DNA of 64,000 nt from Dongia rigui (GTDB lineage: Bacteria > Pseudomonadota > Alphaproteobacteria > Dongiales > Dongiaceae): the NCBI RefSeq assembly GCF_034044635.1, contig NZ_JAXCLX010000002.1, positions 62,001 through 126,000 of the forward strand. Reading direction: 5' to 3'. Under the pieces are notes generated by a model. It ran no database searches and was not told where the DNA came from. It worked only from the letters and a program-made list of their open reading frames with translations. Within the stretch, counting starts at the first letter, position 1. Every line of letters begins with the position of its first letter. Made by a program: the position numbers and the translations under genes. Below, piece after piece: positions 38,153 through 62,342 of the stretch.

Positions 38153-38206
38153 AATGGTGGGCGGTACAGGGATTGAACCTGTGACCCCTACCATGTCAAG
38201 GTAGTG
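38153..38206. other. Left attachment site (displaced tRNA-Val 3' fragment)
   Basis: 54 bp identical to 62266-62319. It contains the acceptor 3' strand, T arm, variable loop and anticodon arm of tRNA-Val in minus orientation, but then diverges (GATTATTCC instead of the D arm), so it cannot make a tRNA. It is the attachment-site copy left by integration. Confidence 0.9.
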
Positions 38207-38242: not shown

Positions 38243-39514
38243 TCATCCTGCTTTTTTTATCTGCACGTTTTTTGCACGTGAAGCCATCCCGAACTCAAGC
38301 TCGTTGGCGAGGTCTTTGGCATGCTCGGGGGAAAGGTGCTGGTACCGCTTAAGCATCCGGGGGCTAAGCCAACCGCCCGCTTTCTGGACGTGTCGGTCCG
38401 AGAAGCCGCGCATGGTCAGGTGGCTGGCAGCGTTATGCCGGCCCCAATGGGGCGTAACGGTCCTGACTATTGCCGCCCGACCCCGGAGGCGCAGCGCGGC
38501 CGCCGCGTCGCCCTGGTGGGCCTTCTGGCTTGCCAGACGCTCGATAACGATCGCCGCCCGCTCCCGCATGGCTTTCCAGGCAGTCTTCACCACGAACCCG
38601 GTCTGCTTCTTGGGACGTTTATAGGGTTTGCCGTCATCGGCCAGGAATAAGGCGTCGTGACTATCCGTCCGCTTCTCTAGGCTTTCCCGGATCATCTCGG
38701 CATACCAGTCCGGGATTGTCCGAAAGATGGGCTTCTTGGACTTTGAAAACCCGAGAAATATATGTTCATGGCCGGGCTCCATGCTGATCCCGGTGCCGTC
38801 CGGACGCTGGTAGTTGGGTAGCCGACGAGGCACAAACAGTAATTCTCCGCCGCGGATGCCCGTCGCGAATACGCCGGCCACGAACAGTTTAAGATGCTTT
38901 GGCGCCTTACGGATCAATAGCGCTATTTCCTCGGCATAGAGCCATTTATTAACGGGTTGCTCCGCAATATCGTATTCGGGAAGGTCGGGGCGTTCGTATT
39001 CGCTTATCCACCGCTGCGCCACGGCATGGTTCATGATGGTGCAAAAGACGGTTGCCTCACGTTGCATCGTGGAGAGCGAATTGCCCTTCGCAATGTGCAT
39101 CTCATCGAAATAGGCCGCGAGGTGTCCCTTCGAACTTTCGACGAACTCTTTGAGGGGGATGTCGGCCACCCGCCTCGCCCGCAAGAAGTTGACCCATTTG
39201 ATAACGTACTCGATTTCCTTATCTGGCTGGCCGGCAAGGGCGGGGTTTCCCGCTACGCGGCGTCGATTCCGAACATCGGCGTAGTCTGCCGCTGCTTCGA
39301 TGAATGTCTTGACGGCTGCTGCACCATAGAGAAGCTCATTGTAGATTTCGCCTTCTCGGCGGAGGCGGATTTCCTCGGCACGGGTTGCAGCCCCGGGCTC
39401 CCCTGCGCCAATGCCTGTAGTCTCATAAACGGATCGCGATTTTTTCCCTGCGCGGACCGTGCCACGGAGGTAGTACGTCGAGCGACCGGCGGGGATGCAG
39501 ACCTTGAGAGACAT
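38243..39514 (-). CDS. Tyrosine-family site-specific integrase
   Basis: A 423-aa tyrosine recombinase. Catalytic residues are visible: Arg in GVFATGIRGGELLF (near residue 220), the HxxR box in TPHWGRHNAASHL (near residue 355), and the C-terminal His/Trp and Tyr nucleophile in GGWLSPRMLKRYQHLS (near residue 385). The N-terminal part is an arm-binding/SAM-like region. The position next to the left attachment copy, transcribed toward it, is usual for tRNA-targeting islands. It should catalyse integration and excision at tRNA-Val. Confidence 0.92.
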   Translation of the reverse strand: MSLKVCIPAGRSTYYLRGTVRAGKKSRSVYETTGIGAGEPGAATRAEEIRLRREGEIYNELLYGAAAVKTFIEAAADYADVRNRRRVAGNPALAGQPDKEIEYVIKWVNFLRARRVADIPLKEFVESSKGHLAAYFDEMHIAKGNSLSTMQREATVFCTIMNHAVAQRWISEYERPDLPEYDIAEQPVNKWLYAEEIALLIRKAPKHLKLFVAGVFATGIRGGELLFVPRRLPNYQRPDGTGISMEPGHEHIFLGFSKSKKPIFRTIPDWYAEMIRESLEKRTDSHDALFLADDGKPYKRPKKQTGFVVKTAWKAMRERAAIVIERLASQKAHQGDAAAALRLRGRAAIVRTVTPHWGRHNAASHLTMRGFSDRHVQKAGGWLSPRMLKRYQHLSPEHAKDLANELEFGMASRAKNVQIKKAG

Positions 39515-40241: not shown

Positions 40242-42344
40242 CTACTTCACGATCTGCCAATGCCCCCCGCCGGGAAGCTCAATGACCTGGCCGTGGTCCT
40301 TTAGGACACTCAACCCGCGGACAACGAGATCTTTGGCTCGGATCCGGTTGTGGCCGTGAGTGTAGATATCCCGGAGGCTGGCTGTACCGCCCAGATTCTC
40401 TATTGCTGAGCGCACCCTTTCCGCCAGGACGATGTCGGGGTGTACGGACATGACGCCAGACAGCCGCAATGCTTCAGCCCGGTAATACTCCATGAGCTCA
40501 ACACTCCGCTGCATGGACTGGCCAGATACTTCCATCGCATCCGGGTTCCCCACCAGTTCGATGATGGCTGCTATTCTGGCGGCATTCTCCGTGCAGCGGG
40601 CACTGAACTCTAGGATGTCATCAAATGCTCCGCCGGGTGCACGTTGAGCCTCGTTGGCATCGTGGAACTTGATCGCTATCTCCTTTGCCTGCGGTGACAT
40701 GGTTAGGTTCTTGAATTGCAGCCGAGCAGGTTCTCCGATCGCAGGCAGGTCGATCCGGCTTAGCAGTTCTTTCATGGCGCGCTCGTAAGTCTCGATTGCG
40801 CCCGGACTTGCAGCTTTCGGTGCACGGTACATCCTCGTCCCAGCGACCGAAGGTGGTGCAGATATGAGCATGCGAGCCATTAGACCCTGAGATTTCAACA
40901 AAGGGTCGCCTAGCAGCATGTCGGCAATACTTGGCTGCAACATCAAGTGAAGGGCGAACCGAACGCCCCGTACAGTCTGCAACGGCTCACCAGCTCTTGT
41001 GCGCATGAACGATCCACTGCTCCACAGGCCGGACAGATGAGCCGCTGTCTTTGTGCGGTTGTCTTTGTTCATCGCGAAGCCGCCCAGAAAGCTCCCTCCT
41101 TCGTCCGAGAACAATCCCGCGCTACCAGGATTGGATGTCAGTAGCTTGAACGCTCCCTCAATTGTCGGCTCCGAGCAGAGAAGGTATGGCTTGACGGGCG
41201 GGACGGGTTTTGCCCGAAGCGCTTCCAAGTCACATTCCGAGCCTGCCCGTTGCTCCTTCGAGCCCTTTCCGGTGCCATCCAGAGCGTCATTAAAATCCGC
41301 CTCCCACTGGGCGAGCATTGCCTGATAGCGGGTGTCGTCCAAGCGTCCCATACGTTCGTGCTCAATCTCCCAATTGCGGATTGGACGCATGGCAATACTG
41401 TCGCTTGATGATTTCCCCTCGCCTGAAGCAGCGATCGTCACCAAGAACAACGTCGTCGGTGACTGCCCACCTACAATCGGAGTAACGTCGGCAAAGCTCT
41501 GGACGCACAGCGATGCCGCTCCCAAAACCGACTGAGCGGCGACCGCAGGCGGGGTTTGAGTTACGTCATGAATCGCTTCCGCTGCCGGACCCAAGATGGG
41601 GCCGAGAGCGTGAATCGGGAACGGCGCGCTTTCTTCGACCGGTCGCCGCAGTGGCAAAGGGCCGTTGGCCGAAAGTGCCTCGGTTGCTGCTTGCTGCAAC
41701 TGCTGCAAACCGTGAACGGTGACACCGTCCGGCAACTCATCGGCCAGATCCCATCCCTCAGGGTAGGTTGAAGGGACATTGACGATCTTGATGGACTTTG
41801 CACCGCTAATGCGGCAGGCGCGAGCAACGTCAGCCGAGTAGCGCCTCCCAGCATCGTCGTTGTCCGGCCAGATCCACACGTCCCGGTCCTTGACGGGTGA
41901 CCAGTCAGACTTGTCCGCCCCATTTGAGCCCCCGACCGACGTGGTGACTGCCATTGCCGGAAACTTCTCCGCCGCGGCGATGACCGTCTTCTCTCCCTCT
42001 ACCACCAAGATACCTTGTGACGGGTCCTGCAAGAGTTCTGCCAACCGGAAGAGGGGAATGTTCTTCGGTCTGCCGGTCCATGTCAGACTGCCGTCGCCAT
42101 TCAGAGACGCAAATCGATATGTCTTGCCTGCCGCCGTCTGGAAACGAAGGACATGGCCAACCAGTGACCCCTCCCTATCCCGGTAAGGCCAACCGGCGGC
42201 AGGGCTGCCCAGCCCCCGGTGTTCAAAAGCTGCCAGTTGTGCCTCATCAAGAGCCGAAAGAAGTTCGACGGTGGGTGATGAGGGGGGACCAAGCAGCAAC
42301 GCGGTGGGGCTAGTACCGTCCAACGCGTCAATACGACTATTCAA
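40242..42344 (-). CDS. Toprim-DUF3987 replication protein (primase/helicase-like)
   Basis: A 700-aa protein with an N-terminal Toprim region: the Glu in GILVVEGEKTVIAA near residue 115 and the DxD in VWIWPDNDDAGRRYS near residue 158. A DUF3987 region follows with a Walker-A-like ASGEGKSS near residue 310. Proteins of this type occur in phages, satellites and islands and are thought to support element replication. The start is TTG at 42344, immediately after the TAA of the upstream gene, with GGGAG 7 nt before it. Coupling to the small primase-like gene is therefore likely. Confidence 0.8.
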   Translation of the reverse strand: MNSRIDALDGTSPTALLLGPPSSPTVELLSALDEAQLAAFEHRGLGSPAAGWPYRDREGSLVGHVLRFQTAAGKTYRFASLNGDGSLTWTGRPKNIPLFRLAELLQDPSQGILVVEGEKTVIAAAEKFPAMAVTTSVGGSNGADKSDWSPVKDRDVWIWPDNDDAGRRYSADVARACRISGAKSIKIVNVPSTYPEGWDLADELPDGVTVHGLQQLQQAATEALSANGPLPLRRPVEESAPFPIHALGPILGPAAEAIHDVTQTPPAVAAQSVLGAASLCVQSFADVTPIVGGQSPTTLFLVTIAASGEGKSSSDSIAMRPIRNWEIEHERMGRLDDTRYQAMLAQWEADFNDALDGTGKGSKEQRAGSECDLEALRAKPVPPVKPYLLCSEPTIEGAFKLLTSNPGSAGLFSDEGGSFLGGFAMNKDNRTKTAAHLSGLWSSGSFMRTRAGEPLQTVRGVRFALHLMLQPSIADMLLGDPLLKSQGLMARMLISAPPSVAGTRMYRAPKAASPGAIETYERAMKELLSRIDLPAIGEPARLQFKNLTMSPQAKEIAIKFHDANEAQRAPGGAFDDILEFSARCTENAARIAAIIELVGNPDAMEVSGQSMQRSVELMEYYRAEALRLSGVMSVHPDIVLAERVRSAIENLGGTASLRDIYTHGHNRIRAKDLVVRGLSVLKDHGQVIELPGGGHWQIVK

Positions 42345-45536: not shown

Positions 45537-46091
45537 TTAAGGGCTGCCGAGCAGCCGATAGATCGACGCTTTTGAGAGGCCAAAAGAGGTCATTAAGTCG
45601 CGAATTAACTCTCCCTTTTGTCGCCGCGCCTTTAACTGTGCAATCTGGTCGTCAGTCAGGACTCGCTGCCTTCCGAAGGCAACGCCACGTTCCTTTGCCT
45701 TTGCGATGCCCTCCAACTGGCGCTCCTTGCGGATATCTGCCTCAAACTCGGCAATTAGAGCCAAGAGGCCTACCATCAGCTTGCCGTGCTTGGTGGTTGT
45801 ATCCAGCCCGCTCTGGTCCAGGCAACGGAAGCCCACGCCCTTGTCCTTTAGACGGGCCAGGATGGCGTAGAAGTCGGTTGTGGAGCGGGCTAGGCGGTCA
45901 AGCTTGGTAACTAGCAGCACGTCGCCTTCTCGGACGTAGTCGAGGCACTTGGCGAGTTCGACGCGCTTGCCATCGAGTCCAGATTTCTTTTCGGCATAGA
46001 TCTTTTCGCAGCCGGCGTTCTTCAACATATCGTGCTGCACTGCGAGCGTTTGGCCGGTGGTCGAGACGCGGGCATATCCAACTATTGCCAT
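45537..46091 (-). CDS. Serine recombinase (resolvase/invertase family)
   Basis: A 184-aa resolvase. The catalytic serine lies in GYARVSTTGQTL near residue 10. Conserved arginines and the KLDRLARS block (near residue 65) follow, along with the AEFEADIRKERQLEGIAKAK linker helix in spaced form and a C-terminal HTH (KGELIRDLMTSFGLSKASIYRLL). It could invert or resolve DNA within the island. No inverted-repeat pair bounding a switchable segment was found by eye. Confidence 0.9.
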   Translation of the reverse strand: MAIVGYARVSTTGQTLAVQHDMLKNAGCEKIYAEKKSGLDGKRVELAKCLDYVREGDVLLVTKLDRLARSTTDFYAILARLKDKGVGFRCLDQSGLDTTTKHGKLMVGLLALIAEFEADIRKERQLEGIAKAKERGVAFGRQRVLTDDQIAQLKARRQKGELIRDLMTSFGLSKASIYRLLGSP

Positions 46092-52534: not shown

Positions 52535-53842
52535 TCAAACCACGCCATCGTCGGACGCCACTTCCCCCCGGCCGGGATAGATCTCTTCAGGTGTTTTCCA
52601 TTGCAGAAACGTCTTTAGCGCATCCGTTTCACCGATCAATGCTTGAGCCCGGTCCAGTCGCTCTCGGAGGGCTCCCTGCTCATCAATTGGCATAAGGGAA
52701 AGCTGCGCCCGCGCATTTTTGAAGAAAGCTTCAAGCTGCTTGCTCTTGGCCCAATCCTCGATGATCGAGCGCATCTCTTCCGTGCTCTCTTCGAGCGCTT
52801 CAGCGCGCTTTTTGGCTTCTTCCTTGCGCTTCCATTCGTCCATTTGGGCCCGCCAGCGCTGGTGCTCGCGCTCGGCCTCTCGTTTTCCCTCCTCGATCAG
52901 CCGTGTGATTTCAGGAATCGAGTTTTCGAGTTCCTCGACGATCTTCCCGCTTTCCGGAAGGGGCGTGTCGCGCTCCTCGCGCCATACTCGGCTCCATTTC
53001 GCGAACCCGTATGGTGAGTAGGCGAGGACAGAGAAACGGCCAGTGGGAAGGTCTTTTTTCGTGGTCCAGGACCAATCGCCGGGCCGTTTTGCCAGTCTCG
53101 CTGTGACTTCCGTCTCGCGAACGTACTGACCGCCGACGTATCGCATCTCAACGTCTTCAGCGAGCTCTATAATCGTAAGCCCGAACGCCATCTCGCCCAC
53201 GCGTGCAACGGTTATGCGACGTGGCCCCCAGAGATGATGGCGGCCGTGGCGGTCTGTCTTTCTCGGAACCTCACGCTCGTCGATTTCAGGACGGTAGTGA
53301 AATTTATCCTCACTTTTTGCAATTGAGACGCGATAGCCTCTTGCTTCGAAAGCGGAGAACAGTCGATTGGCGACACTCAACCCCTTATCAAGGCCGCTTT
53401 CTGTCACGACCAGATCGACAAGCAGTTGTTTGGTGGGGCGCAGATACTGAGAATCGTATGCGGTCCTCGACCCATGAAATAGTTCTCTTGCACCCGCCAG
53501 GAGCGGATGTGTTTTCGGTACTCTGGATGCGCCCGCGCTGGATGTTTCGCGAATTCGAGTCCGTTGCATCTTCGGCGGACGCTTCGCCGGAACTTTCGAT
53601 CCCGGCTTCCACTCAGCAGGTTGTCCGGGGGCCGCAGGTGGCAGTTGTGGCCGCTTAGGTGCCCGTCCGACAGCATGCTTGCCCCAGTACCCGGGGGCAG
53701 GGCGAGGGATTCGGAGCGCGTCACAGGCCTCGGCAAACTGGATTGCCGACACACCAAACTGTACCGCCAATCTATTCAGCGGTTCCGACCATGCCAGTTC
53801 ATAGAGTTGAACTCGCGAGATTGTTGAGTTCTGCAATTTCAT
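52535..53842 (-). CDS. Putative HTH-domain protein, 435 aa
   Basis: The first about 60 residues include ISRVQLYELAWSEPLNRLAVQFG and ACDALRIPRPAPGYWGK, a pattern I associate with HTH-bearing hypothetical proteins of bacterial islands. A basic proline-rich linker (about 60-100) follows, then an unknown domain. A long charged coiled coil spans about 300-370 (KREAEREHQRWRAQMDEWKR). It lies 209 bp downstream of vsr on the same strand, so it may be part of, or regulated with, the restriction-like operon. Function unknown. Confidence 0.55.
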   Translation of the reverse strand: MKLQNSTISRVQLYELAWSEPLNRLAVQFGVSAIQFAEACDALRIPRPAPGYWGKHAVGRAPKRPQLPPAAPGQPAEWKPGSKVPAKRPPKMQRTRIRETSSAGASRVPKTHPLLAGARELFHGSRTAYDSQYLRPTKQLLVDLVVTESGLDKGLSVANRLFSAFEARGYRVSIAKSEDKFHYRPEIDEREVPRKTDRHGRHHLWGPRRITVARVGEMAFGLTIIELAEDVEMRYVGGQYVRETEVTARLAKRPGDWSWTTKKDLPTGRFSVLAYSPYGFAKWSRVWREERDTPLPESGKIVEELENSIPEITRLIEEGKREAEREHQRWRAQMDEWKRKEEAKKRAEALEESTEEMRSIIEDWAKSKQLEAFFKNARAQLSLMPIDEQGALRERLDRAQALIGETDALKTFLQWKTPEEIYPGRGEVASDDGVV

Positions 53843-54051: not shown

Positions 54052-54528
54052 TCACGACGCGCCACGGATCTGCACCGTCTTTCCGGCTGATCTGATGCCG
54101 GGTCTATTTTCCAGTATGAATTTCTCGCAGGCTTCGAGGACATCATCTGGTTGGCGCCGCCTCGGTCCCCTAAGCGCACATTCCCAAACAAGCATAACGC
54201 GCCAACCGGCTGAGCGCAGCCTGTCGAGAATTTGCTCATCTCGCTTTCGATTGCTGTCTATCTTCGACTGCCAGAACGCCTGACGCGTTTCCGGGAGCTT
54301 AAACAATGAGCAGTTGTGACCGTGCCAAAAGCAGCCATGAACGAAAATGACAGCCTTATGCCTAGGAAAAACTAGGTCCGGTCGGCCCGGGAGGTCACGT
54401 GAGTGCAATCGGAAGCGAAACCCCATTCGATGCAAGCCTCGTCGGAGAAGCCATTCGGGCTTGGTGTCTTTACTCCGAACACGGCTCATATTGAGCCGCC
54501 GCTGCTCTGGTGTCAGGACGTCAACCAA
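54052..54528 (-). CDS. vsr: Very short patch repair endonuclease Vsr
   Basis: A 158-aa Vsr protein. It opens LTPEQRRLNMSRVRSKDTKPE and holds the catalytic and zinc-site core GRPDLVFPRHKAVIFVHGCF followed by WHGHNC. Vsr nicks T-G mismatches that arise when 5-methylcytosine deaminates, and it usually accompanies a cytosine-5 methyltransferase. It is the last gene of the methyltransferase-ATPase-Z1-nuclease operon and starts 15 bp after the preceding stop. Confidence 0.93.
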   Translation of the reverse strand: MVDVLTPEQRRLNMSRVRSKDTKPEWLLRRGLHRMGFRFRLHSRDLPGRPDLVFPRHKAVIFVHGCFWHGHNCSLFKLPETRQAFWQSKIDSNRKRDEQILDRLRSAGWRVMLVWECALRGPRRRQPDDVLEACEKFILENRPGIRSAGKTVQIRGAS

Positions 54529-54543
54529 TTATCCATGTCCTTC

Positions 54544-55533
54544 TCAGGCGTAGCTTGGATTGGCAGCGCCAACGATTGTTTTTAACTCATTGGAGTCCAG
54601 CGTTGGTAGATTGGCCAAATCGATTGTGTAGCGAATAGCAACGATCCCCGTCGGTAATGCCAGATTGTCCGGGAACCTGGGAAACTCATCATCGACTTCA
54701 TATGCTGAGACTTCACGAAGATTAAATCGTAATAGCTCCCCAGAATCACGCATCTCTTCTGACCAACCCATGCTGACCATCTTAGCCAGAAATAGATCCA
54801 GTGACGCTGCGTCCTTCCGCATTGCCTCGATAATGGAATCTACCCGCGTAGCGATCGTTTCTCGCCCCCCAATCGTTTCCTCCAACTGAACCGATATCAT
54901 CAACAGCTGGCAACCTGACGGCGCTGTCAATTGATCTAAGCGCGAAATCTCGTGCTCATGTCGGCTCTTGCGGGTTGTCTTCACCTCTATATGCAATTGG
55001 TCACCGACAAAATCGTGTCGCTCAGAATCTGGCCCGCTCCATTGCTCGACCGCAGCTGACCCAAGGCATGGAATCATTAGTGTTTCGAGAACGAAGAGCT
55101 CGCCAAACAAGCCAACCTGAGTAGTCTTGTCCATTTGCTGTCGCGAGGGCTTCCAAGCCGACTGCCAAGCCCGAATAGTTGCGGCCACTGCAGCCCATGG
55201 CTCACGATAGTCCACTAGAATTGCTTCGACGAACTCTCTGCAGAATGGAGTGAATACCCGCTCATGGGAAGGATGTGCCGTTACAACGAGAAAATCTCCG
55301 GTCTCAAGGCGTCTATATCGAACTTTCAGCCCGTTCAGATCCGGAATCTTTTGGGTGGTCGGGCCGCGAGAGACTGGCACTAGCAAGAGAAGATTTCCCG
55401 CGTCATCTATCGCCATTGAAAGCGAAGTCTCCGCACCATCCGCCAGGATTGGAGTGGTTACCAAGGTGTCCCTATTAGAGGGCCTCTTGGTCCGAAGTGC
55501 AGCCCATTGCGCCGGAGTGGGACAATCAGCCAT
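54544..55533 (-). CDS. PD-(D/E)XK-motif nuclease of a Z1-type restriction system
   Basis: About 329 aa. The central HDFVGDQLHIEVKTTRKS (near residue 170) supplies the Asp and Glu-x-Lys of a PD-(D/E)XK nuclease core, preceded by a helix with GLFGELFVLETLM. The start at 55533 overlaps the Z1 gene end by 8 bp, implying translational coupling; an upstream ATG at 55548 is also possible. This type of protein is a regular partner of Z1-domain proteins and MORC-like ATPases, and is the probable DNA-cutting subunit. Confidence 0.82.
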   Translation of the reverse strand: MADCPTPAQWAALRTKRPSNRDTLVTTPILADGAETSLSMAIDDAGNLLLLVPVSRGPTTQKIPDLNGLKVRYRRLETGDFLVVTAHPSHERVFTPFCREFVEAILVDYREPWAAVAATIRAWQSAWKPSRQQMDKTTQVGLFGELFVLETLMIPCLGSAAVEQWSGPDSERHDFVGDQLHIEVKTTRKSRHEHEISRLDQLTAPSGCQLLMISVQLEETIGGRETIATRVDSIIEAMRKDAASLDLFLAKMVSMGWSEEMRDSGELLRFNLREVSAYEVDDEFPRFPDNLALPTGIVAIRYTIDLANLPTLDSNELKTIVGAANPSYA

Positions 55534-57898
55534 TGGCGACCATCTCATTAACTACCCAAGGCGCGTCGGCATCTGAGGTGTGTGGCAGACTGAGAGCCAG
55601 AGCGATTACAGTGTCGGCTTTCTCAGTACCCAGTGGTTCAGGGTCCAACGGATAGATTAGCAGCAAGCCCTGCGTCGCAGGTCTTGCTGCACGCATCGCG
55701 TCTGAATCATAAGTATTGTTCTCACGCTTGTAGGCTTCGGGTCCGTCAACGAGATCAACGCCTTCGTGACGAGGGTCAATCAGAATTCCAATGCTTTCGC
55801 TACTCTCGCGACGGCGTCTTACGAGGCCAATGTTCTGGTTGCCGATCGTTATCCGCCGTCCTTGCTCCGGAGACGCGATGAAGATTGTCCAGTCCGTGAG
55901 TTCGCCAAGAACAGAACGTGACATGATCCAATCAGCAAGCTCGTAGCTGCGAAACGCGACAATGTCGTCATGAGTTTGATACCTGCGCAGTATAGCGCAG
56001 ACTGCTTCCGGAGCTACGTCGCGTATAATCAGGCCGCCGTGCCGTTGCTGGGGACGCGGAAGTGTCTGAATGGACTCGTCAATAAGGGTTCGATTCTCCA
56101 AGATTTTTACGGAGTCCGACAGAGGCAAAAGAACGGTCTGGGGATGTTCGCCCGACCAGGAATCTTGCTGAGTCACCGCGGTTGCCGACTTATTTCGGGC
56201 AGTGAGCAGCAAGTCGCTATGACCCCGGAGACGGATGGCCATCTGATCCGGTCTTCGGCCGGCGCGTTCCAGGGCGATGATTGAGTCTCTCATCGCCTGC
56301 TCAACGATGGCCAACTCTGAGAACCACCTTGCAATCCCGTCTGTTGTCCAGACTCGTATCAGATCCTCATATCCGCGTCTGAATCCGTACCAGCGTGCCA
56401 TCTGGAGAAGCGTATCGCACATTGACGCGGTGCGCAGAAAGTAGGAGATCGTTAGCCCTTCAAGTGTAAGGCCGCGAGATAAACGGTTTCCACCCACGGC
56501 AATAAGGTGTCGGCCGGGTTTCTCGTCATATTCGAGATTTTCTCCAGTCGCACTGTTCAGCACGACAATAACGATCCGACGTAGAACCGAAAGTGCCTGT
56601 TCGACGACATCGGCATCATCCGGTGGCGATTCCATCCCAACCTTCAAATTGGCCCAGGCAGCCCGTAGGAGTGCTTCGAGTGGCTCGCGCTGACCCAGTT
56701 CTTCCGCATTACGCCACAGTCTTATGTGTTCGCTGATTGTCTTTGCAATGCGCTCCTGATCATCTGTTCTCGCGCTGACATGTACGAGCATAGTGTGGCT
56801 TTGACCGGCCAAATTTGGCCGCAATTGACGTACCCCGCCCGCTACGCAGAACGATAGAACTGCGTCGGATAGCGACGTCGGCAGACTCTGTCCGCCAGCT
56901 TCAATCACGATCTCGGCGCTCTTCCGACGGCGAGGCGCCCGAAGTGCTTTGACATCCTCATCCGGGACAACACGCAGAACCTCACGGCCCTGAGCCGAAA
57001 CGCCAAAAAGCTCCTCGGTGCCGGTGTAACCAGCCGGACGAGGTAGCTGCACTACAAAATCCTTTGGAAACAAGTCTTCGCCCACCCGCCGATCCACGGC
57101 ACTGGGATTTATAAAGATGTTTGCGAATGGCGTGGCAGTATATGCGACGTAGGCCGCTTTCGGCGCACGAGACAATATTGAGCGAATTAGCGCGTTCGTT
57201 CTGGACGGCGCCAAATTCTCGTCCGCTTCATCGTCTTCGGTAATAGTAGGGTCGGGCGGTCTGTTGCCTTTAGTGTTTATGGAGGCTTGGTCAGCCTCGT
57301 CGTCAATAATCAAGACGGGCATCTCGTCGAGATAGCGTCTGGCGGAGTTCAGCCAGTGGTCCAGCTTTTTCAGAACTGCAACATGCTTTTTTACCACTGC
57401 CAGGAATGGCGCAGAGGATTGCAATATGCGGACATCTTGCTCCTTAAAATCCTCCGTTGGGGTCGTAAGTCTTATCCATTCCCGACCCCTCTCAGCTGTC
57501 GGCGCATCAGCTTGGTGTCCGGTCAGCTCTCGTTCAAGCCGGTTCTGTGTTTGATTTCTGAGAGAGTCGTGGATGCCCGACAGAACAATCACAATTCTAT
57601 AGCCCGCGTCCGCAGCGCGCGCGGCAAGGGCAGTATAGTTCGCTGTCTTCCCACTCTGGACATAACCGACCACGAGGCCTCGACCTTGAAAGGGAGAATC
57701 GCTCTCCGGGTCGCGTAAGTGACGCAGCACTCTTAGAGACTCTGCTGCGACAGAGGCGATCTGCTGAGGTTGCCATTTCGGGTCGGCGCGCAATAGCGCT
57801 TCTAGCCGTGTCCAATGATACCAGGAAGCATCACGGACAAGACGGTCAGTCCAGTTGGGCCTTAGAGGAAGGCTCCCAATGACGCGCACATTTGGCAT
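55526..57898 (-). CDS. Z1-domain SF2 helicase-like protein
   Basis: A 790-aa ATPase. Walker A is GYVQSGKTANYTAL near residue 78, the DEAD-box equivalent is LIIDDEADQAS near residue 200, and motif III is AYTATPFANIF near residue 250. The Z1 block lies around residues 460-505, with GGNRLSRGLTLEGLTI and the arginine-finger region QMARWYGFRRGYEDL. Z1 proteins are helicase-like ATPases found mainly in restriction-type operons. The ATG overlaps the ATPase-gene stop by one base (TGATG). Its likely role is NTP-driven translocation linked to the neighbouring nuclease. Confidence 0.88.
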   Translation of the reverse strand: MPNVRVIGSLPLRPNWTDRLVRDASWYHWTRLEALLRADPKWQPQQIASVAAESLRVLRHLRDPESDSPFQGRGLVVGYVQSGKTANYTALAARAADAGYRIVIVLSGIHDSLRNQTQNRLERELTGHQADAPTAERGREWIRLTTPTEDFKEQDVRILQSSAPFLAVVKKHVAVLKKLDHWLNSARRYLDEMPVLIIDDEADQASINTKGNRPPDPTITEDDEADENLAPSRTNALIRSILSRAPKAAYVAYTATPFANIFINPSAVDRRVGEDLFPKDFVVQLPRPAGYTGTEELFGVSAQGREVLRVVPDEDVKALRAPRRRKSAEIVIEAGGQSLPTSLSDAVLSFCVAGGVRQLRPNLAGQSHTMLVHVSARTDDQERIAKTISEHIRLWRNAEELGQREPLEALLRAAWANLKVGMESPPDDADVVEQALSVLRRIVIVVLNSATGENLEYDEKPGRHLIAVGGNRLSRGLTLEGLTISYFLRTASMCDTLLQMARWYGFRRGYEDLIRVWTTDGIARWFSELAIVEQAMRDSIIALERAGRRPDQMAIRLRGHSDLLLTARNKSATAVTQQDSWSGEHPQTVLLPLSDSVKILENRTLIDESIQTLPRPQQRHGGLIIRDVAPEAVCAILRRYQTHDDIVAFRSYELADWIMSRSVLGELTDWTIFIASPEQGRRITIGNQNIGLVRRRRESSESIGILIDPRHEGVDLVDGPEAYKRENNTYDSDAMRAARPATQGLLLIYPLDPEPLGTEKADTVIALALSLPHTSDADAPWVVNEMVANG

Positions 57899-59889
57899 CA
57901 GTCGGCTTTCTTATTGAGAAGGTGCTTCTGCACCTCCATCTGATCCAACCGGTCGAGAAAGGCCGCCAGGTGGGAAAGCGTCGCTTCGTCCTTTCCAATC
58001 TGCCTTACTAGCGCTGAAAGCGCCGGATCTGCTTCACTGACCTGTACGGCAACATCCCCGGCCAACCCCCGGGTCACCTTCCAGACAAATTTCGTTGTCT
58101 TCACCTCGCGGACCGCGATCTTTGGCGTAGGGGGCGCAGCTACACCTGTTCCCGTGCTACCGGGCGGCGGGTTCGGTTTACCCGCACGACTGACTCGGGG
58201 GCCAGCGTCGCCCGGCTTACCGGTCGGGCGCGACGCCTTCCGATACTTACTCTGGCTATCCCGACGTGCGTCGGTGGCAATCTTCTTGATTGCTTCCTGT
58301 AACTGTAAGGGGAGCTGGACAAACTGTTTACTGATGTTGACTTCCATCGCGTCATCGAGAGCTTGACCGAAGTTCACAACCACTCGCGCGAGCTTCGTCT
58401 TCTCGTCGCTCGTGGCCCACATCTGATGCCAGCCTCCCCATTTGATGAGGCGATCATTTCGGTATATGAAGAGCCCCTGGCTCTCGTTGCGTTTCCCGTG
58501 AAGTCCGATCTGGTCGAGCGCCGCGTTTATTGATTCCTGGCCACCAGCTTTGTGATGAGCCTCGATTTCATCCTCACTCGGCAAAAGAAAAGCTTGCACC
58601 TCAACCTTCGCGTCACCGTTCTCGGTAGGAATCTTGATCGTCTTCCTATCATACGCAGCGGTAAGCGGGTGCCCGACAGGATTGTTGGCCGCAATGGGCT
58701 TCCCGTTTATTGAGATAGTCACGCGCTTGCGGCCAGCGGCCTTACCTTCGATAAATCGATGAAAGACCAGTGCTAGGTGTCGCTGGAGTTCCATGATTTC
58801 CCAGGAGTACGGATCAAGTCCGCGCAGTCCTCTTGATGCCTGGGGTGGGCGCATGTTTTTCCATAGCACAACGGTGCCTTGTTTCCCGAGCCGGGTAGCC
58901 TCCTGTTCCCACGCTTCGAGTGGATCGGAAAGCACATCCCATTCCCCAAGACGATCTTTGTCCCACGTCAGATGGTGAGCCTGCTGACCATCCTGCTTTG
59001 TAACTACCGTCAGAACTTTCGCCTGTGACCAGGATGCTCCCTTCAACCCGTAACCATATTTCCCCAGCGCATTATCATCGTAATCAGTAACGCTCCCAAT
59101 GCGCATCGCTTCGTCGAGCGTACTTGGGTCCATGCCCTTGCCGTCATCGGCAATTGTCAGCCAGCGTCCGTGCCCTGTGTCGGGACGGCCGAAGAATATT
59201 TTGATATTGGTGGCTTCGGCTCCAATAGCATTGTCTACAATGTCGGCAACGGCGCTTGGCATCGAATGCCCGACCGACGACAAGATGTCGATTAGCCGTG
59301 GGGCATTTGGAGGCAGCTGCTTCCGTCCTGAAGAATTGTCTTTGTGAGAGTTAGGCATAACCTTTCCCTTACCCTTCCTCGAAGTTCCGAACAGATCCGG
59401 CCGACTCTCACACAAAATCCTTCGGACCTTCTGACCTTCTTCACCGTGAAGCGCGATCATCCCCGATTTCGATTTTGCTAGATTGCTTGTCTCGCCGGTC
59501 GCAAAGATTGCCCGGGTCGTCCGATCGTCCGGCGGGAAAATCGCCCAGGCTCCCGATGCAGGAGTCTTACTGGAATTGATTTCCATTGCGAACAAGCATC
59601 CGGGCTCTACGAAGTGAAAGCACTTGTCTTTTGGGCAATTTCCTTCAAGCCGCCAGTTCTTATCCTGTCGCTTCAGCCAATGCTTTTTCTCGCTGACACC
59701 GATGTCCGTGTCATACCGCAAGTCCATGTAAATCAGCTCTGAATCTTTCGCGGCCGGGAAAACTCGGTCTACGACATCCCAGTCAAAATTTACTGCGCGC
59801 TGCTTCGAGCCTTCCTTGCCCTGGCGCCGATACTCATGGAACATCCCAAGTTCGCTATGCGTGAGGCGGCGTAATATAAGGAAGATCAT
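57898..59889 (-). CDS. GHKL/MORC-like ATPase with N-terminal extension
   Basis: A 663-aa protein. Residues about 195-420 form a Bergerat-fold ATPase: motif I SAVADIVDNAIGAEA, motif II IADDGKGMD and motif III GKYGYGLKGASWS. This resembles MutL, Hsp90 and eukaryotic MORC proteins. The catalytic Glu of motif I (ExxxN) appears as Asp (DIVDN). A 185-residue N-terminal domain beginning MIFLILRRLTHSELGMFHEY precedes it, and a proline-rich linker with a helical tail closes the protein. It overlaps the methyltransferase stop by 4 bp. It probably acts as an ATP-driven clamp in the restriction complex. Confidence 0.86.
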   Translation of the reverse strand: MIFLILRRLTHSELGMFHEYRRQGKEGSKQRAVNFDWDVVDRVFPAAKDSELIYMDLRYDTDIGVSEKKHWLKRQDKNWRLEGNCPKDKCFHFVEPGCLFAMEINSSKTPASGAWAIFPPDDRTTRAIFATGETSNLAKSKSGMIALHGEEGQKVRRILCESRPDLFGTSRKGKGKVMPNSHKDNSSGRKQLPPNAPRLIDILSSVGHSMPSAVADIVDNAIGAEATNIKIFFGRPDTGHGRWLTIADDGKGMDPSTLDEAMRIGSVTDYDDNALGKYGYGLKGASWSQAKVLTVVTKQDGQQAHHLTWDKDRLGEWDVLSDPLEAWEQEATRLGKQGTVVLWKNMRPPQASRGLRGLDPYSWEIMELQRHLALVFHRFIEGKAAGRKRVTISINGKPIAANNPVGHPLTAAYDRKTIKIPTENGDAKVEVQAFLLPSEDEIEAHHKAGGQESINAALDQIGLHGKRNESQGLFIYRNDRLIKWGGWHQMWATSDEKTKLARVVVNFGQALDDAMEVNISKQFVQLPLQLQEAIKKIATDARRDSQSKYRKASRPTGKPGDAGPRVSRAGKPNPPPGSTGTGVAAPPTPKIAVREVKTTKFVWKVTRGLAGDVAVQVSEADPALSALVRQIGKDEATLSHLAAFLDRLDQMEVQKHLLNKKAD

Positions 59890-61481
59890 TTGTCTTCCTT
59901 CCCGGTCGTGGTGTGCAGCAGCCGCCTGTCGACTCCCAGGACATCACTGCGAATATCCGGAAGGTGCCGGCACCCCAGCATTGTCCTCATAGCCATGGCA
60001 ATTGCGTATGCGACAAGAGGAGGAACCGCGTTACCTATCTGCTTCAGCGCCGGATTCATTGAACCCTTGAGGGAAAAGCCGTCCGGAAAGGATTGAAGTC
60101 GCGCAGCCTCTCGCACGGAGATTGTGCGAGCTTGCTCACTGTCGAAGTGAATATGACTGTAGGAGTCTTTCCCAAGGTGAGCCATTAAGGTACGCACGGG
60201 CCTGTCGCGATAAAGCTTCCACCATTTGTTCGGAAATTTCCCGGGATCGTAGGGAAGGGTCCATTGCCTCGCAAACTCCTTGGCGTCCTGACTGTTCGAA
60301 AATCCGTTCACCCCCGCGCGCCAGCGGCCGTTCATCAGCTGCTCGCGCTTGGCTTCGACGAAACGCCATATCTGCGGGTATTCCCAGCCTTCCTCCATCA
60401 TCCTGAAGATCTTGTAGTCCCTCGGCAAATATCGGATGACATGGCCAGTCGTATGGCCACTTGCTCCAAACCCAGGCCATTCACGCATGAGGCGAGACCA
60501 TTTTGTCGTCGGCTTCACCGACAAGTAAGTCACCGGCTCGGAAGGATCCTTTCGGCCGCGAGAAAGCTTTCCTGCCTCCAGCAACTCAAGTGCGTGGATT
60601 GGTGGAAGGTCTGCGAGGGCCTGTTCAGCCGTAGTCGCAGGTAGAGCACTTCCTTCGCTTGGATCATCTATCCATCGGTGACTTTGCTCTGAGGCAAAGG
60701 GAAGGCCGATCGCTTCAGAGATCAGCTTTCGCGCAGTCGCCCGGGTGCCTTCGTAACCAGGTGGCAATGGCGTGTGATGGGTAGGCGCCGGAAAAAGTAC
60801 GTCTTCGTCGAGATCCCGATGAACGCCAACGAGAAACATGCGTTCGCGGATCTGTGGCACTCCGAACCATGACGCATTCAGCAATGTGTAACGAACTCTG
60901 TATCCTTCTTTCCGGAGGTGCTCCGAAACAGTATCCGCGACATTTTTCCCTCCATGATTCAGGATGTCGGGGACATTCTCCATGAGCAGGGCGAGGGGCT
61001 TGGTTTTTCGGACGTAGTGGAGATATCTTCTCCACAGGTTCACCCGCCCGTCGACAAGAAAGGCCACATCGGCATCGTCCTCATCGCGACGGTGCGCTTC
61101 GTGCCTCAGCTTCGCCCGCCCGACCCTGGCGAATGCCTGGCATGGCGGCCCGCCTACTAGAACGTCAACCTGGTCGTCGGCTGCGCCATCAATTCCCAGG
61201 TCGCGGAAAATCGAACTTGGCGTTTCGATCATTATGTCGCGGGCCTTGAAATGGCCTTGTTGACGCGAGCCATAGGAAATGTGGGCGAAATTGGCGCCGT
61301 GTGATTCGGCTGCCCAGGGATCGGAATCAACCGAAGCTACCAGTTCAAATCCGGCCGTGACAAAACCAAGAGTGATACCGCCACAACCCGCGAACAAGTC
61401 CATGAAACGGGGAGGATTACCGGCTCTCAGCCTCTTAAGTTTCTTTTTAATTGTATCCATGTCCGTCCGTATTGCTTGCAT
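59886..61481 (-). CDS. DNA cytosine-5 methyltransferase
   Basis: About 531 aa with C5-methyltransferase motifs: I FMDLFAGCGGITLGF, IV with the catalytic Cys in VGGPPCQAFARVG, VI ENVPDIL, VIII QIRERMFLVGV, IX AARLQSFPDGF and X QIGNAVPPLVAYA. The target-recognition region lies between about residues 260 and 440. The recognised sequence cannot be read directly. It is the first gene of the operon and would protect host DNA, while Vsr limits mutation at its sites. ATG 61481 is chosen over a GTG three bases earlier; ATG 61460 is also possible. Confidence 0.93.
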   Translation of the reverse strand: MQAIRTDMDTIKKKLKRLRAGNPPRFMDLFAGCGGITLGFVTAGFELVASVDSDPWAAESHGANFAHISYGSRQQGHFKARDIMIETPSSIFRDLGIDGAADDQVDVLVGGPPCQAFARVGRAKLRHEAHRRDEDDADVAFLVDGRVNLWRRYLHYVRKTKPLALLMENVPDILNHGGKNVADTVSEHLRKEGYRVRYTLLNASWFGVPQIRERMFLVGVHRDLDEDVLFPAPTHHTPLPPGYEGTRATARKLISEAIGLPFASEQSHRWIDDPSEGSALPATTAEQALADLPPIHALELLEAGKLSRGRKDPSEPVTYLSVKPTTKWSRLMREWPGFGASGHTTGHVIRYLPRDYKIFRMMEEGWEYPQIWRFVEAKREQLMNGRWRAGVNGFSNSQDAKEFARQWTLPYDPGKFPNKWWKLYRDRPVRTLMAHLGKDSYSHIHFDSEQARTISVREAARLQSFPDGFSLKGSMNPALKQIGNAVPPLVAYAIAMAMRTMLGCRHLPDIRSDVLGVDRRLLHTTTGKEDK

Positions 61482-62265
61482 CACCAGGTTAGGGCCGAAA
61501 ATGCGTCGATTCGGCTGCTAACCGTCACTCTTGGGCAAATCTAGAAAACTCGCAATTGGCTAGCTGCCAGTTTGTTCGCAAGTTACCTGCTGAAGCCACA
61601 GCTAATATTAGCAGTTTGTGAACGCTAAGCTCCATCACTTCCTGTAGACGGTGGCTAGGTTTGCAATAGAGCGCGTCTCCAGAGTTGCCGTCATCTCAAA
61701 GTCAGTTGGGGCGACGCTTATGTAGCAGTATGCAGATGGAATATTAGGGTGGAGCGAGACGCGCTCATAAGGCAGTTTTGTTCCGCCGGAAGCTGGCATG
61801 CACGCCTTCGTTCGGCCAGCTGTAAGAGCAGGTGCAAATGACGCCGGTCGAAAGACTTGGCACGGCCACGGACCCCAGCCGCGACGTCGTGAGTCAGAGC
61901 GAGGCATTCTTCGCGCACCCGGATCCGGGACGCATCCCGCGCGCGAGGCGGAAACACCCCTCGTCGAATAAGCTCCGGAAACATTCACCATAAGATTTCG
62001 ATCGAGAGCCCACACCTCCGTCGAAGACTCTTCTTCGCGCAAGAGATGTGCCGGCAAGCCGAGAAATGCCTCATGGCGGACGTACCGATAGATTATGACG
62101 AGCGGCTATATAAGCGGATCTGTTGTGTGGAACGACCGGGCAACAAGTGCACGGCTTCTGCACGGCTTCAGCTGCCGGTTCATGCCGTGTTCTGCCTTAT
62201 CTTGCCGGATCGCTCTCAATCGCCCGCGGCACAATTGCGAGGAAGTGCTGATTTTAATTGGAAGG
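61482..62265. other. 784-bp gap at the right end of the island
   Basis: No convincing gene. A minus-strand frame at 61635-62057 has a protein-like C-terminal part but an arginine-rich, improbable N-terminal half; it could be a decayed gene. The stretch nearest the methyltransferase must hold the operon promoter, which I could not pin down. Two tandem 11-bp repeats lie at 62148-62169. Confidence 0.4.
62148..62169. repeat. Tandem TGCACGGCTTC repeat near the right attachment site
   Basis: Two exact 11-bp units (62148-62158, 62159-62169) lie about 97 bp inside the right attachment copy. A similar pair of TGCACGT, also 11 bp apart (38262 and 38273), lies 56 bp inside the left copy. They may be arm-type integrase sites. 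Confidence 0.4.
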
Positions 62266-62319
62266 AATGGTGGGCGGTACAGGGATTGAACCTGTGACCC
62301 CTACCATGTCAAGGTAGTG
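62266..62319. other. Right attachment site (within tRNA-Val)
   Basis: Exact 54-bp match to 38153-38206. It overlaps the 3' part of the intact tRNA-Val gene, so integration kept the tRNA functional. Confidence 0.9.
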
Positions 62320-62342
62320 CTCTCCCGCTGAGCTAACCGCCC
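62268..62342 (-). tRNA. tRNA-Val (anticodon GAC)
   Basis: A 75-nt cloverleaf including an encoded CCA. The acceptor GGGCGGT pairs with ACCGCCC, the D stem is GCTC/GAGC, the anticodon stem CTACC/GGTAG holds TTGACAT, and the T arm is ACAGG-TTCAATC-CCTGT. The anticodon GAC lies at 62308-62310. It is the integration target of the island. Confidence 0.97.

What the first reader, a model, noticed from the sequence alone, without database searches (positions are those of the whole stretch)
54052..61484. Five-gene methyltransferase / GHKL ATPase / Z1 helicase / PD-(D/E)XK / Vsr operon
The sequence shows, in one tight minus-strand operon, a C5-methyltransferase, a MORC/MutL-like ATPase, a Z1-domain SF2 ATPase, a PD-(D/E)XK nuclease and Vsr. 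Three junctions overlap (4, 1 and about 8 bp). I recall comparative genomics predicting MutL/MORC-type restriction systems with these parts, but I know of little biochemistry. Inference: methylation marks self DNA, the GHKL and Z1 ATPases form an ATP-driven sensing and translocating complex, and the PD-(D/E)XK protein cuts. This is the strongest candidate for a poorly described defence system in the window.
Basis: partly seen in the sequence, partly recalled or inferred. Interest (0 to 1): 0.85.

Follow-up and report, generated by a model that had tools for sequence, protein, structure and literature searches.

The report
MORC restriction operon with DNA-recognition domain
A mobile island in this bacterium carries a five-gene, ATP-driven restriction-modification system of a kind predicted in 2008, and its MORC-type ATPase carries a predicted DNA-site-reading domain that suggests how such systems could find their target.

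Summary
The five minus-strand genes are real and look intact: C5-methyltransferase, GHKL/MORC ATPase, Z1 SF2 ATPase, DUF4420 PD-(D/E)XK nuclease, Vsr. They lie on a low-GC island between 54-bp tRNA-Val repeats with a tyrosine integrase. The kind is known: Iyer 2008 described such MORC operons, and PMC9523054 lists the Z1/DUF4420/methylase core as putative defence. It is a distant relative of mza but lacks AIPR.

New here: the MORC protein's first ~170 residues, without a significant Pfam match, are predicted to fold as a B3/EcoRII-N-type DNA-recognition domain (VIA Z 12.0 to BfiI). The fusion marks one Z1 clade (20 of 22 rows). Related domains occur alone in four other Z1 systems, fused to NOV_C or AAA proteins, or beside HerA, next to one C5-methyltransferase subfamily wherever the neighbour is held. 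In the other direction, 12 of 21 methyltransferase loci examined have the domain. I infer that B3-MORC reads the unmethylated site, Z1 translocates (as proposed for CglI) and DUF4420 cuts. No activity is shown and the site is unknown.

The parts
59886..61484 (-). C5-cytosine DNA methyltransferase, 532 aa; motifs FAGCGG, GGPPCQ, ENV, QIRER present
   Evidence: Pfam DNA_methylase 6.9e-57; conserved positions; subfamily trees
57898..59889 (-). MORC-type GHKL ATPase, 663 aa, with an N-terminal B3-like domain fused
   Evidence: HATPase_c_3 1.1e-26; MORC S5 motif GLFIYRNDRLI at residue 472; AF2 model (mean pLDDT 74, pTM 0.53) residues about 189-555 match SMCHD1, MORC3, MORC4, MORC2 (rows 1-11, VIA Z 22.9 to 20.7)
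59383..59889 (-). N-terminal B3/EcoRII-N-like DNA-recognition domain (residues 1-169 of the MORC protein)
   Evidence: AF2 mean pLDDT 79, under 50 only in residues 170-195; VIA Z 12.0 BfiI, 11.2 LlaJI.R1-N, 10.2 EcoRII-N; no significant Pfam match
58225..59325 (-). GHKL + S5 ATPase module (residues about 189-555)
   Evidence: N-box ADIVDNA with D216, D219 and N220 at 95% or more of 45 rows
55526..57898 (-). Z1-domain SF2 ATPase, 790 aa; Walker A GYVQSGKT, DDEAD, TATP, DTLLQMARWYG
   Evidence: Pfam Z1 1.9e-63; MzaC-related; motifs
54544..55548 (-). DUF4420 PD-(D/E)XK nuclease, 334 aa; E150, D179, E188-x-K190
   Evidence: Pfam DUF4420 1.9e-67; residues at 95% or more of 46 rows; MzaD-related
54052..54528 (-). 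Vsr mismatch endonuclease, 158 aa
   Evidence: TIGR00632 156.7 bits against cut-off 97.85; E25, D51, H69 at 95% or more of 27 rows
62266..62319 (.). Right attachment repeat, 54 bp, overlapping the 3' part of tRNA-Val
   Evidence: exact direct repeat
38153..38206 (.). Left attachment repeat, 54 bp
   Evidence: exact direct repeat
62268..62342 (-). tRNA-Val(GAC), the likely integration target
   Evidence: ARAGORN
38243..39514 (-). Tyrosine integrase of the island
   Evidence: Phage_integrase 4.6e-15

Best explanation
This is an ATP-dependent, sequence-specific restriction-modification system of the MORC/Z1 kind, carried on a tRNA-Val island. The C5-methyltransferase marks the host's sites (family knowledge). 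The N-terminal B3-like domain of the MORC protein binds the same site when it is unmethylated (inferred from fold and linkage). Binding lets the GHKL/S5 module close as an ATP-dependent dimeric clamp (inferred from recalled knowledge of MORC and MutL). The clamp loads the Z1 SF2 ATPase, which translocates along DNA (by homology to the CglI N-protein, for which translocation is proposed), and the DUF4420 PD-(D/E)XK subunit then cuts (motif shown, activity inferred). Vsr repairs T:G mismatches left by deamination of the methylated cytosines, so self-sites are not lost (family knowledge). Shown here: genes, motifs, a predicted domain fold, co-occurrence, clade structure and domain shuffling. Not shown: DNA binding, cleavage, methylation, protection, and the recognition sequence.
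For: All five catalytic cores look intact. The predicted N-terminal domain matches restriction-enzyme DNA-binding domains, three of them solved with cognate DNA: BfiI Z 12.0, EcoRII-N 10.2, UbaLAI 8.4; LlaJI.R1-N is at 11.2. The fusion marks one Z1 clade (SH-aLRT 100, quick tree), without AIPR in any of its 22 rows as far as the stretches reach. A stand-alone ~190-aa version (hhalign prob 95.4, E 1.7e-8) sits between methyltransferase and Vsr in four Z1 systems whose MORC lacks it, AIPR being seen in three (L102, L104, L112): a separate part in one system is fused to the MORC in the other. Related domains are fused to a NOV_C protein (L060, L105) and an AAA protein (L099), or lie beside HerA (L062, L114). 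Of 11 other records found by the domain alone, 10 carry a methyltransferase of one subfamily next to it; the eleventh, L059, is cut there (L056-L059 are near-duplicates). For CglI, passages report site binding by a B3 domain and an ATPase with a Z1 domain.
Against: From the methyltransferase side the link is loose. Of 21 loci found by methyltransferase and examined (6 of 6 genomes, 15 of 21 plasmids), 12 have a B3 domain found by sequence and 9 do not: L097, L100, L101, L103, L107-L111. L107-L109 are AIPR-type Z1 systems, and a third Z1 layout (DUF4420 before Z1, e.g. L040, L042, L046) has neither B3 nor AIPR, so Z1 systems can do without this domain. The DNA-contact surface was not analysed and no site is known. 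Foldseek E-values for the B3 model are weak (best 7.8e-3) and fluorescent-protein barrels appear from rank 12; support rests on VIA Z. The B3 of R.NgoAVII itself scored only Z 4.9. B3 identity tracks DUF4420 (0.93) more than the methyltransferase (0.77). In all 45 GHKL rows D216 stands where I recall the catalytic Glu of MutL; the effect on hydrolysis is unknown.
Confidence: 0.7

Rival explanations
1. It is a methylation-sensing or structure-sensing (type IV-like or Abi-like) defence: the B3-like domain reads methylated or otherwise marked DNA, or DNA ends, and the methyltransferase is a loosely linked neighbour.
For: The related mza/AIPR-type systems keep GHKL + Z1 + DUF4420 without this domain fused, and some have no methyltransferase hit in the stretch held (e.g. 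L028, L047). The LlaJI.R1 fold hit is to a McrBC-related enzyme (recalled). Nine of 21 methyltransferase loci examined have no such domain.
Against: In the fusion clade 19 of 22 rows have the methyltransferase, the other three being cut or rearranged. Where the domain was found first, the subfamily methyltransferase is beside it in 10 of 11 records, the eleventh being cut.
Confidence: 0.14
2. A selfish addiction restriction-modification module that mainly stabilises the island, with phage defence incidental.
For: It lies on an integrase island with attachment repeats and relatives sit on plasmids.
Against: Not exclusive of defence. No test here tells post-segregational killing from defence.
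Confidence: 0.1
3. A DNA repair or mismatch-processing cassette (MutL-like ATPase + Vsr + nuclease), not restriction.
For: Vsr and a MutL-related ATPase in one operon; Iyer 2008 leaves repair open for some paraMORCs.
Against: The ATPase model matches MORC rather than MutL (Z about 21-23 against 16). There is a dedicated methyltransferase and a B3-like domain, and Vsr is not seen in 6 of 22 clade rows, some of them cut by contig ends.
Confidence: 0.05

Closest known systems
Prokaryotic MORC restriction operons, third type (Iyer, Abhiman and Aravind 2008, PMC2292703)
   Same: [quoted passage not shown] cytosine methylases and Vsr frequent
   Different: The text read (parts 1-3 of 4) does not describe a B3 domain on the MORC of this operon type; it mentions a VP1/RAV-type DNA-binding protein with the SWI2/SNF2 type. 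Figure 2 has uncharacterised X1-X3 domains that I could not see.
mzaABCDE (Gao 2020, recalled; paper not held; called validated in PMC9523054)
   Same: MutL-like ATPase, Z1 and DUF4420 related to MzaB, MzaC, MzaD
   Different: No AIPR protein in window 30000-64000 or own genome; adds methyltransferase, Vsr and a fused B3-like domain; scores far under the NCBIfam cut-offs; a separate Z1 clade
Putative defence system with Z1 + DUF4420 (printed DUF4220) + C5-methyltransferase core (PMC9523054, section 11)
   Same: The three core genes; its Type I is associated with DNA repair endonucleases, as Vsr here
   Different: Type I has six genes that the section does not name, so identity could not be checked; no recognition domain is reported in that section
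CglI / NgoAVII (PMC4267653 abstract, section 22 and passages; PMC5737866 abstract)
   Same: Restriction-modification with an SF2 ATPase carrying a Z1 domain and a B3 site-recognition domain; ATP hydrolysis required
   Different: There the B3 domain is on a PLD nuclease; here it is on a MORC ATPase and the nuclease is PD-(D/E)XK; no MORC is named in the three-gene CglI system

Membership tests
Prokaryotic MORC family (Iyer 2008) | Intact GHKL ATP-binding motifs | tested here: met
   D216, D219, N220, D248, G250, G252, G276, G279, G281 at 95% or more of 45 rows
Prokaryotic MORC family (Iyer 2008) | S5 motif GhXhhpXXRhl | tested here: met
   Window GLFIYRNDRLI; 68 of 69 GHKL ORFs, against 5 of 381 other ORFs of 440 aa or more
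MORC operon type 3 (Iyer 2008) | SFII helicase with DThhQXuRhFG | tested here: inconclusive
   Window has DTLLQMARWYG (Y for F). Strict form 0 of 23 in the clade and 43 of 87 overall; with F or Y allowed 12 of 23 and 58 of 87. Pfam Z1 match 1.9e-63
MORC operon type 3 (Iyer 2008) | RE-fold partner with E-D-ExK | tested here: met
   E150, D179, E188, K190
mza system | MzaB, MzaC, MzaD homologues | tested here: met
   NCBIfam E 4.6e-48, 4.9e-120, 5.3e-26, but all far under the curated cut-offs (163.8/850, 401.9/1500, 91.5/420 bits), so homologues and not members
mza system | AIPR protein (MzaE) | tested here: not met
   None in window 30000-64000 or in the own genome; 0 of 22 clade rows as far as stretches reach
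mza system | Sigma-factor MzaA | tested here: inconclusive
   No sigma-factor Pfam hit in the proteins scanned, but no MzaA model was run; PMC9523054 names mzaA as a sigma factor
CglI/NgoAVII class | Z1-domain SF2 ATPase | tested here: met
   Pfam Z1; the same family rings in the Corynebacterium glutamicum control genome
CglI/NgoAVII class | PLD-family nuclease carrying the B3 domain | tested here: not met
   No PLD domain in the five proteins by Pfam; the B3-like domain is on the MORC protein
B3-like DNA-recognition domain | Pseudobarrel fold like restriction-enzyme B3 domains (definition recalled) | tested here: met
   VIA Z 12.0 over 144 residues, rmsd 3.3 A, BfiI; 11.2 LlaJI.R1-N; 10.2 EcoRII-N, on a predicted model
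B3-like DNA-recognition domain | Sequence-specific DNA binding | not testable with these tools
   Needs a binding assay
Vsr endonuclease | TIGR00632 subfamily model and catalytic residues | tested here: met
   156.7 bits against 97.85; E25, D51, H69 at 95% or more of 27 rows

The most novel reading that the evidence does not exclude
The B3-like domain is a plug-in specificity module. One subfamily of C5-methyltransferases, usually with Vsr, has been combined through this domain with at least five different effectors: MORC/Z1/DUF4420 fused, short-MORC/Z1 systems with the domain stand-alone, a NOV_C protein, an AAA protein, and a HerA-linked protein. All would target the same or a similar DNA site. 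MORC systems, and through them mza-like systems, would then be sequence-specific ATP-dependent restriction enzymes whose MORC is the site-bound clamp, an ancestral role for eukaryotic MORC proteins.
Probability: 0.4. Interest if true: 0.75.

Novelty: new variant of a known kind. Interest (0 to 1): 0.55.

Why it matters
How MORC-containing restriction systems choose their DNA, and what the MORC ATPase does in them, is open; PMC8011034 calls bacterial MORCs poorly understood (passages). A MORC protein with a predicted site-recognition domain, next to a methyltransferase, makes both questions directly testable: find the methylated site, then ask whether the MORC protein binds it and whether ATP-driven clamping follows. 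It also offers a bacterial model for eukaryotic MORC2, MORC3 and SMCHD1 ATPase modules, its closest structural matches.

Tried and rejected
Filing it as mza: rejected, because AIPR is absent, curated scores are not reached and its Z1 clade is separate. Filing it as CglI: rejected, no PLD nuclease by Pfam.

The claim that every methyltransferase of the subfamily has a B3 neighbour held in the first tree (22 rows against 20, 99/100). It failed when methyltransferases were sampled by themselves. In the second tree 29 of 38 subfamily rows have the domain, but most of those rows had been found through Z1 or B3. Counting only loci found by methyltransferase, 12 of the 21 examined have it: 5 of 6 genomes and 7 of 15 plasmids. 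Rows left out of the tree: L021, L034, L036, L041, L045 (long or partial), L056, L058, L059 (near-duplicates of L057), L064-L096 (short stretches). Left out of the tree: L056, L058, L059. Of the 21 plasmid hits I fetched the surroundings of 13; H4 and H13 lay in records already fetched as L060 and L061; H10, H16, H20, H21, H23 and H24 were not fetched.

Residue-identity correlations between the parts were high for all pairs without Vsr (0.71-0.93), so they do not single out B3 with the methyltransferase. The B3 profile found nothing convincing in the PDB by sequence (one row, E 1.5). The window methyltransferase has no match in 50,697 phage records at E 1e-40. PHROGs gave one weak, unnamed match to the GHKL protein and none to five others. 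The 435-aa gene downstream (52535-53842) was checked as a possible sixth part: homologues in 1 of 50 loci, so it was left out. Gao 2020 could not be read. Searches for a published B3-MORC fusion showed none in their listings; most subscription papers are not held. Which site is methylated was not pursued.


Full report
Observation. Overlaps are 4 and 1 bp, then 23 bp by the first ATG or 8 bp by M6, then a 15-bp gap. Catalytic residues are intact and conserved in the relatives.

Setting. The operon is at the right end of a genomic island. A 54-bp exact direct repeat lies at 38153-38206 and 62266-62319, the right copy overlapping the 3' part of tRNA-Val. A tyrosine integrase stands just inside the left copy. 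GC in the island is about 0.50-0.59, against 0.60-0.66 to its left (2-kb windows). None of the six other same-genus genomes searched with the B3 profile matches.

Census. A scan of genome contigs with the Z1 protein gave 50 loci. ORFs were sorted with profiles built from the window proteins. Three main layouts appear. In the first, the window's, the GHKL protein is 663-703 aa, Z1 is mostly about 770-790 aa, and no AIPR is seen. In the second, the GHKL protein is mostly about 460-540 aa, Z1 mostly about 890-970 aa, and an AIPR protein (Pfam 1e-102 in L026) usually follows DUF4420. In the third (e.g. L030, L031, L040, L042, L043, L046) DUF4420 precedes Z1, and neither AIPR nor the extra N-terminal domain is found. 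In a 73-row Z1 tree (quick method, with long-branch warnings) the first layout is one clade of 22 rows (SH-aLRT 100). The six most MzaC-like rows form a clade of their own (97). In the window's clade the methyltransferase is present in 19 of 22 rows, DUF4420 in 20, Vsr in 16, AIPR in 0, the N-terminal domain on the GHKL protein in 20. In 398 genomes of the phylum the N-terminal domain profile hits 3, the window's own among them, and the MzaC model hits 23 at E 1e-10, the own genome included, none over its cut-off.

The N-terminal domain. The first-layout GHKL proteins have about 170 extra residues in front of the ATPase module, strongly conserved (17 aligned), with no significant Pfam match. 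AlphaFold2 gave mean pLDDT 79, under 50 only in residues 170-195. Foldseek found no match at E 0.001 or better; its best rows are mostly B3-containing proteins (auxin response factor 7.8e-3; UbaLAI 1.3e-2, prob 0.98), with fluorescent-protein barrels from rank 12. VIA-align, a second look at Foldseek's candidates, gives BfiI recognition domain Z 12.0 (144 residues, 3.3 A), LlaJI.R1-N 11.2, EcoRII-N 10.2, UbaLAI 8.4, plant B3 domains 5.7-7.2, R.NgoAVII 4.9. The full-length model (mean pLDDT 74, pTM 0.53) places a GHKL+S5 module at about 189-555. Its best matches are SMCHD1, MORC3, MORC4 and MORC2 (rows 1-11, Z 22.9-20.7), above Hsp90 (about 18) and MutL (about 16). The MORC S5 motif of Iyer 2008 is present.

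The domain elsewhere. Searches with the domain and, separately, with the methyltransferase found it in other settings. Several of these matches rest on an iterated profile. AIPR is seen in the first three; for L098 the contig ends just after DUF4420. (b) Fused to a NOV_C domain (a nuclease-like fold by recall): L060 and L105. Similar proteins stand beside the MORC system in L061 (NOV_C 1.8e-5) and L007 (B3 match; C-terminus not scanned). (c) Fused to a weakly matched AAA domain: L099. (d) As the front of a 649-aa protein next to a HerA-type ATPase in L062 and, with 51% and 68% identity, in L114 from the window's own family. (e) As a 168-aa orphan after a methyltransferase in viral contigs L056-L058, and at the edge of L059. 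Shared across settings are an invariant Q in the SKQR-like motif and KNWR.

Methyltransferase link. Starting from the domain: of the 11 records found by it alone (G253, G101, three plasmids, five viral contigs, G407), 10 have a methyltransferase scoring with this subfamily next to it, and L059 is cut there (L114's was not put in a tree). In the first tree all 22 methyltransferases beside such a domain form one side of a branch (99/100). Starting from the methyltransferase: 12 of 21 examined loci have the domain, and in the second tree 29 of 38 subfamily rows (clade 98/98). Of the nine without, four (L097, L100, L101, L103) have instead an AAA-like + DUF2357 pair (L101 by Pfam; L100, L103 by annotation; L097 by sequence likeness). 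L107-L109 are AIPR-type Z1 systems; L110 and L111 are unclear. So the domain goes with this methyltransferase subfamily, but the subfamily does not always go with a detectable domain.

Mechanism. For CglI, PMC4267653 (abstract, section 22 and passages) reports that B3 domains bind the site, the SF2 protein with a Z1 domain hydrolyses about 170 ATP per second per monomer, and cleavage needs it. PMC5737866 (abstract) proposes translocation. By analogy, the window system separates recognition and clamp (B3-MORC), motor (Z1) and scissors (DUF4420). Vsr and methyltransferase roles are family knowledge. Everything about activity is inference.

Comparison with the literature. Seen: PMC2292703 parts 1-3 of 4, PMC9523054 passages and section 11, PMC8011034 passages, PMC5379612 passages, PMC12137116 passages. 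Gao 2020 was not held and is recalled. The operon kind is therefore known by prediction. The B3-MORC fusion was not in the listings, but Figure 2 of Iyer 2008, whose legend names uncharacterised extra domains, could not be seen. Verdict: new variant of a known kind.

Noticed in passing
window 38153-62319: A ~24-kb integrative island at tRNA-Val with integrase, DUF3987/Toprim-type protein (40242-42344) and a resolvase (45537-46091); several other ORFs scanned had no Pfam match.
   Followed up: partly
L062 519-6239 and L114 5900-11652: A four-gene cassette of C5-methyltransferase, B3-headed 649-aa protein without Pfam match (scanned in L062), HerA-type ATPase and Vsr, in two genomes (51% and 68% identity for the middle pair); looks like another restriction system.
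   Followed up: partly
L056-L058 (and L059): Viral contigs carry a methyltransferase (69% identical to the window's in L057) followed by an orphan 168-aa B3 domain; possibly a phage's protection against such systems, or the remnant of a captured operon.
   Followed up: partly
L055 5424-11376: A viral contig carries methyltransferase, a GHKL gene split into two frames, and Z1 of the window's clade.
   Followed up: no
L007, L061 and L105: Two candidate effectors share one methyltransferase and Vsr: the MORC system plus a second B3 protein (L007, L061), or a B3-NOV_C protein plus a DUF2357 pair (L105).
   Followed up: partly
window 52535-53842: 435-aa protein downstream of Vsr without convincing family; its homologues flank a Z1 system on both sides in L031 (Bradyrhizobium) but were found in no other of 50 loci.
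   Followed up: partly
GHKL proteins, residue 216 in the window: The N-box position where I recall the catalytic Glu of MutL is Asp in all 45 aligned rows.
   Followed up: no
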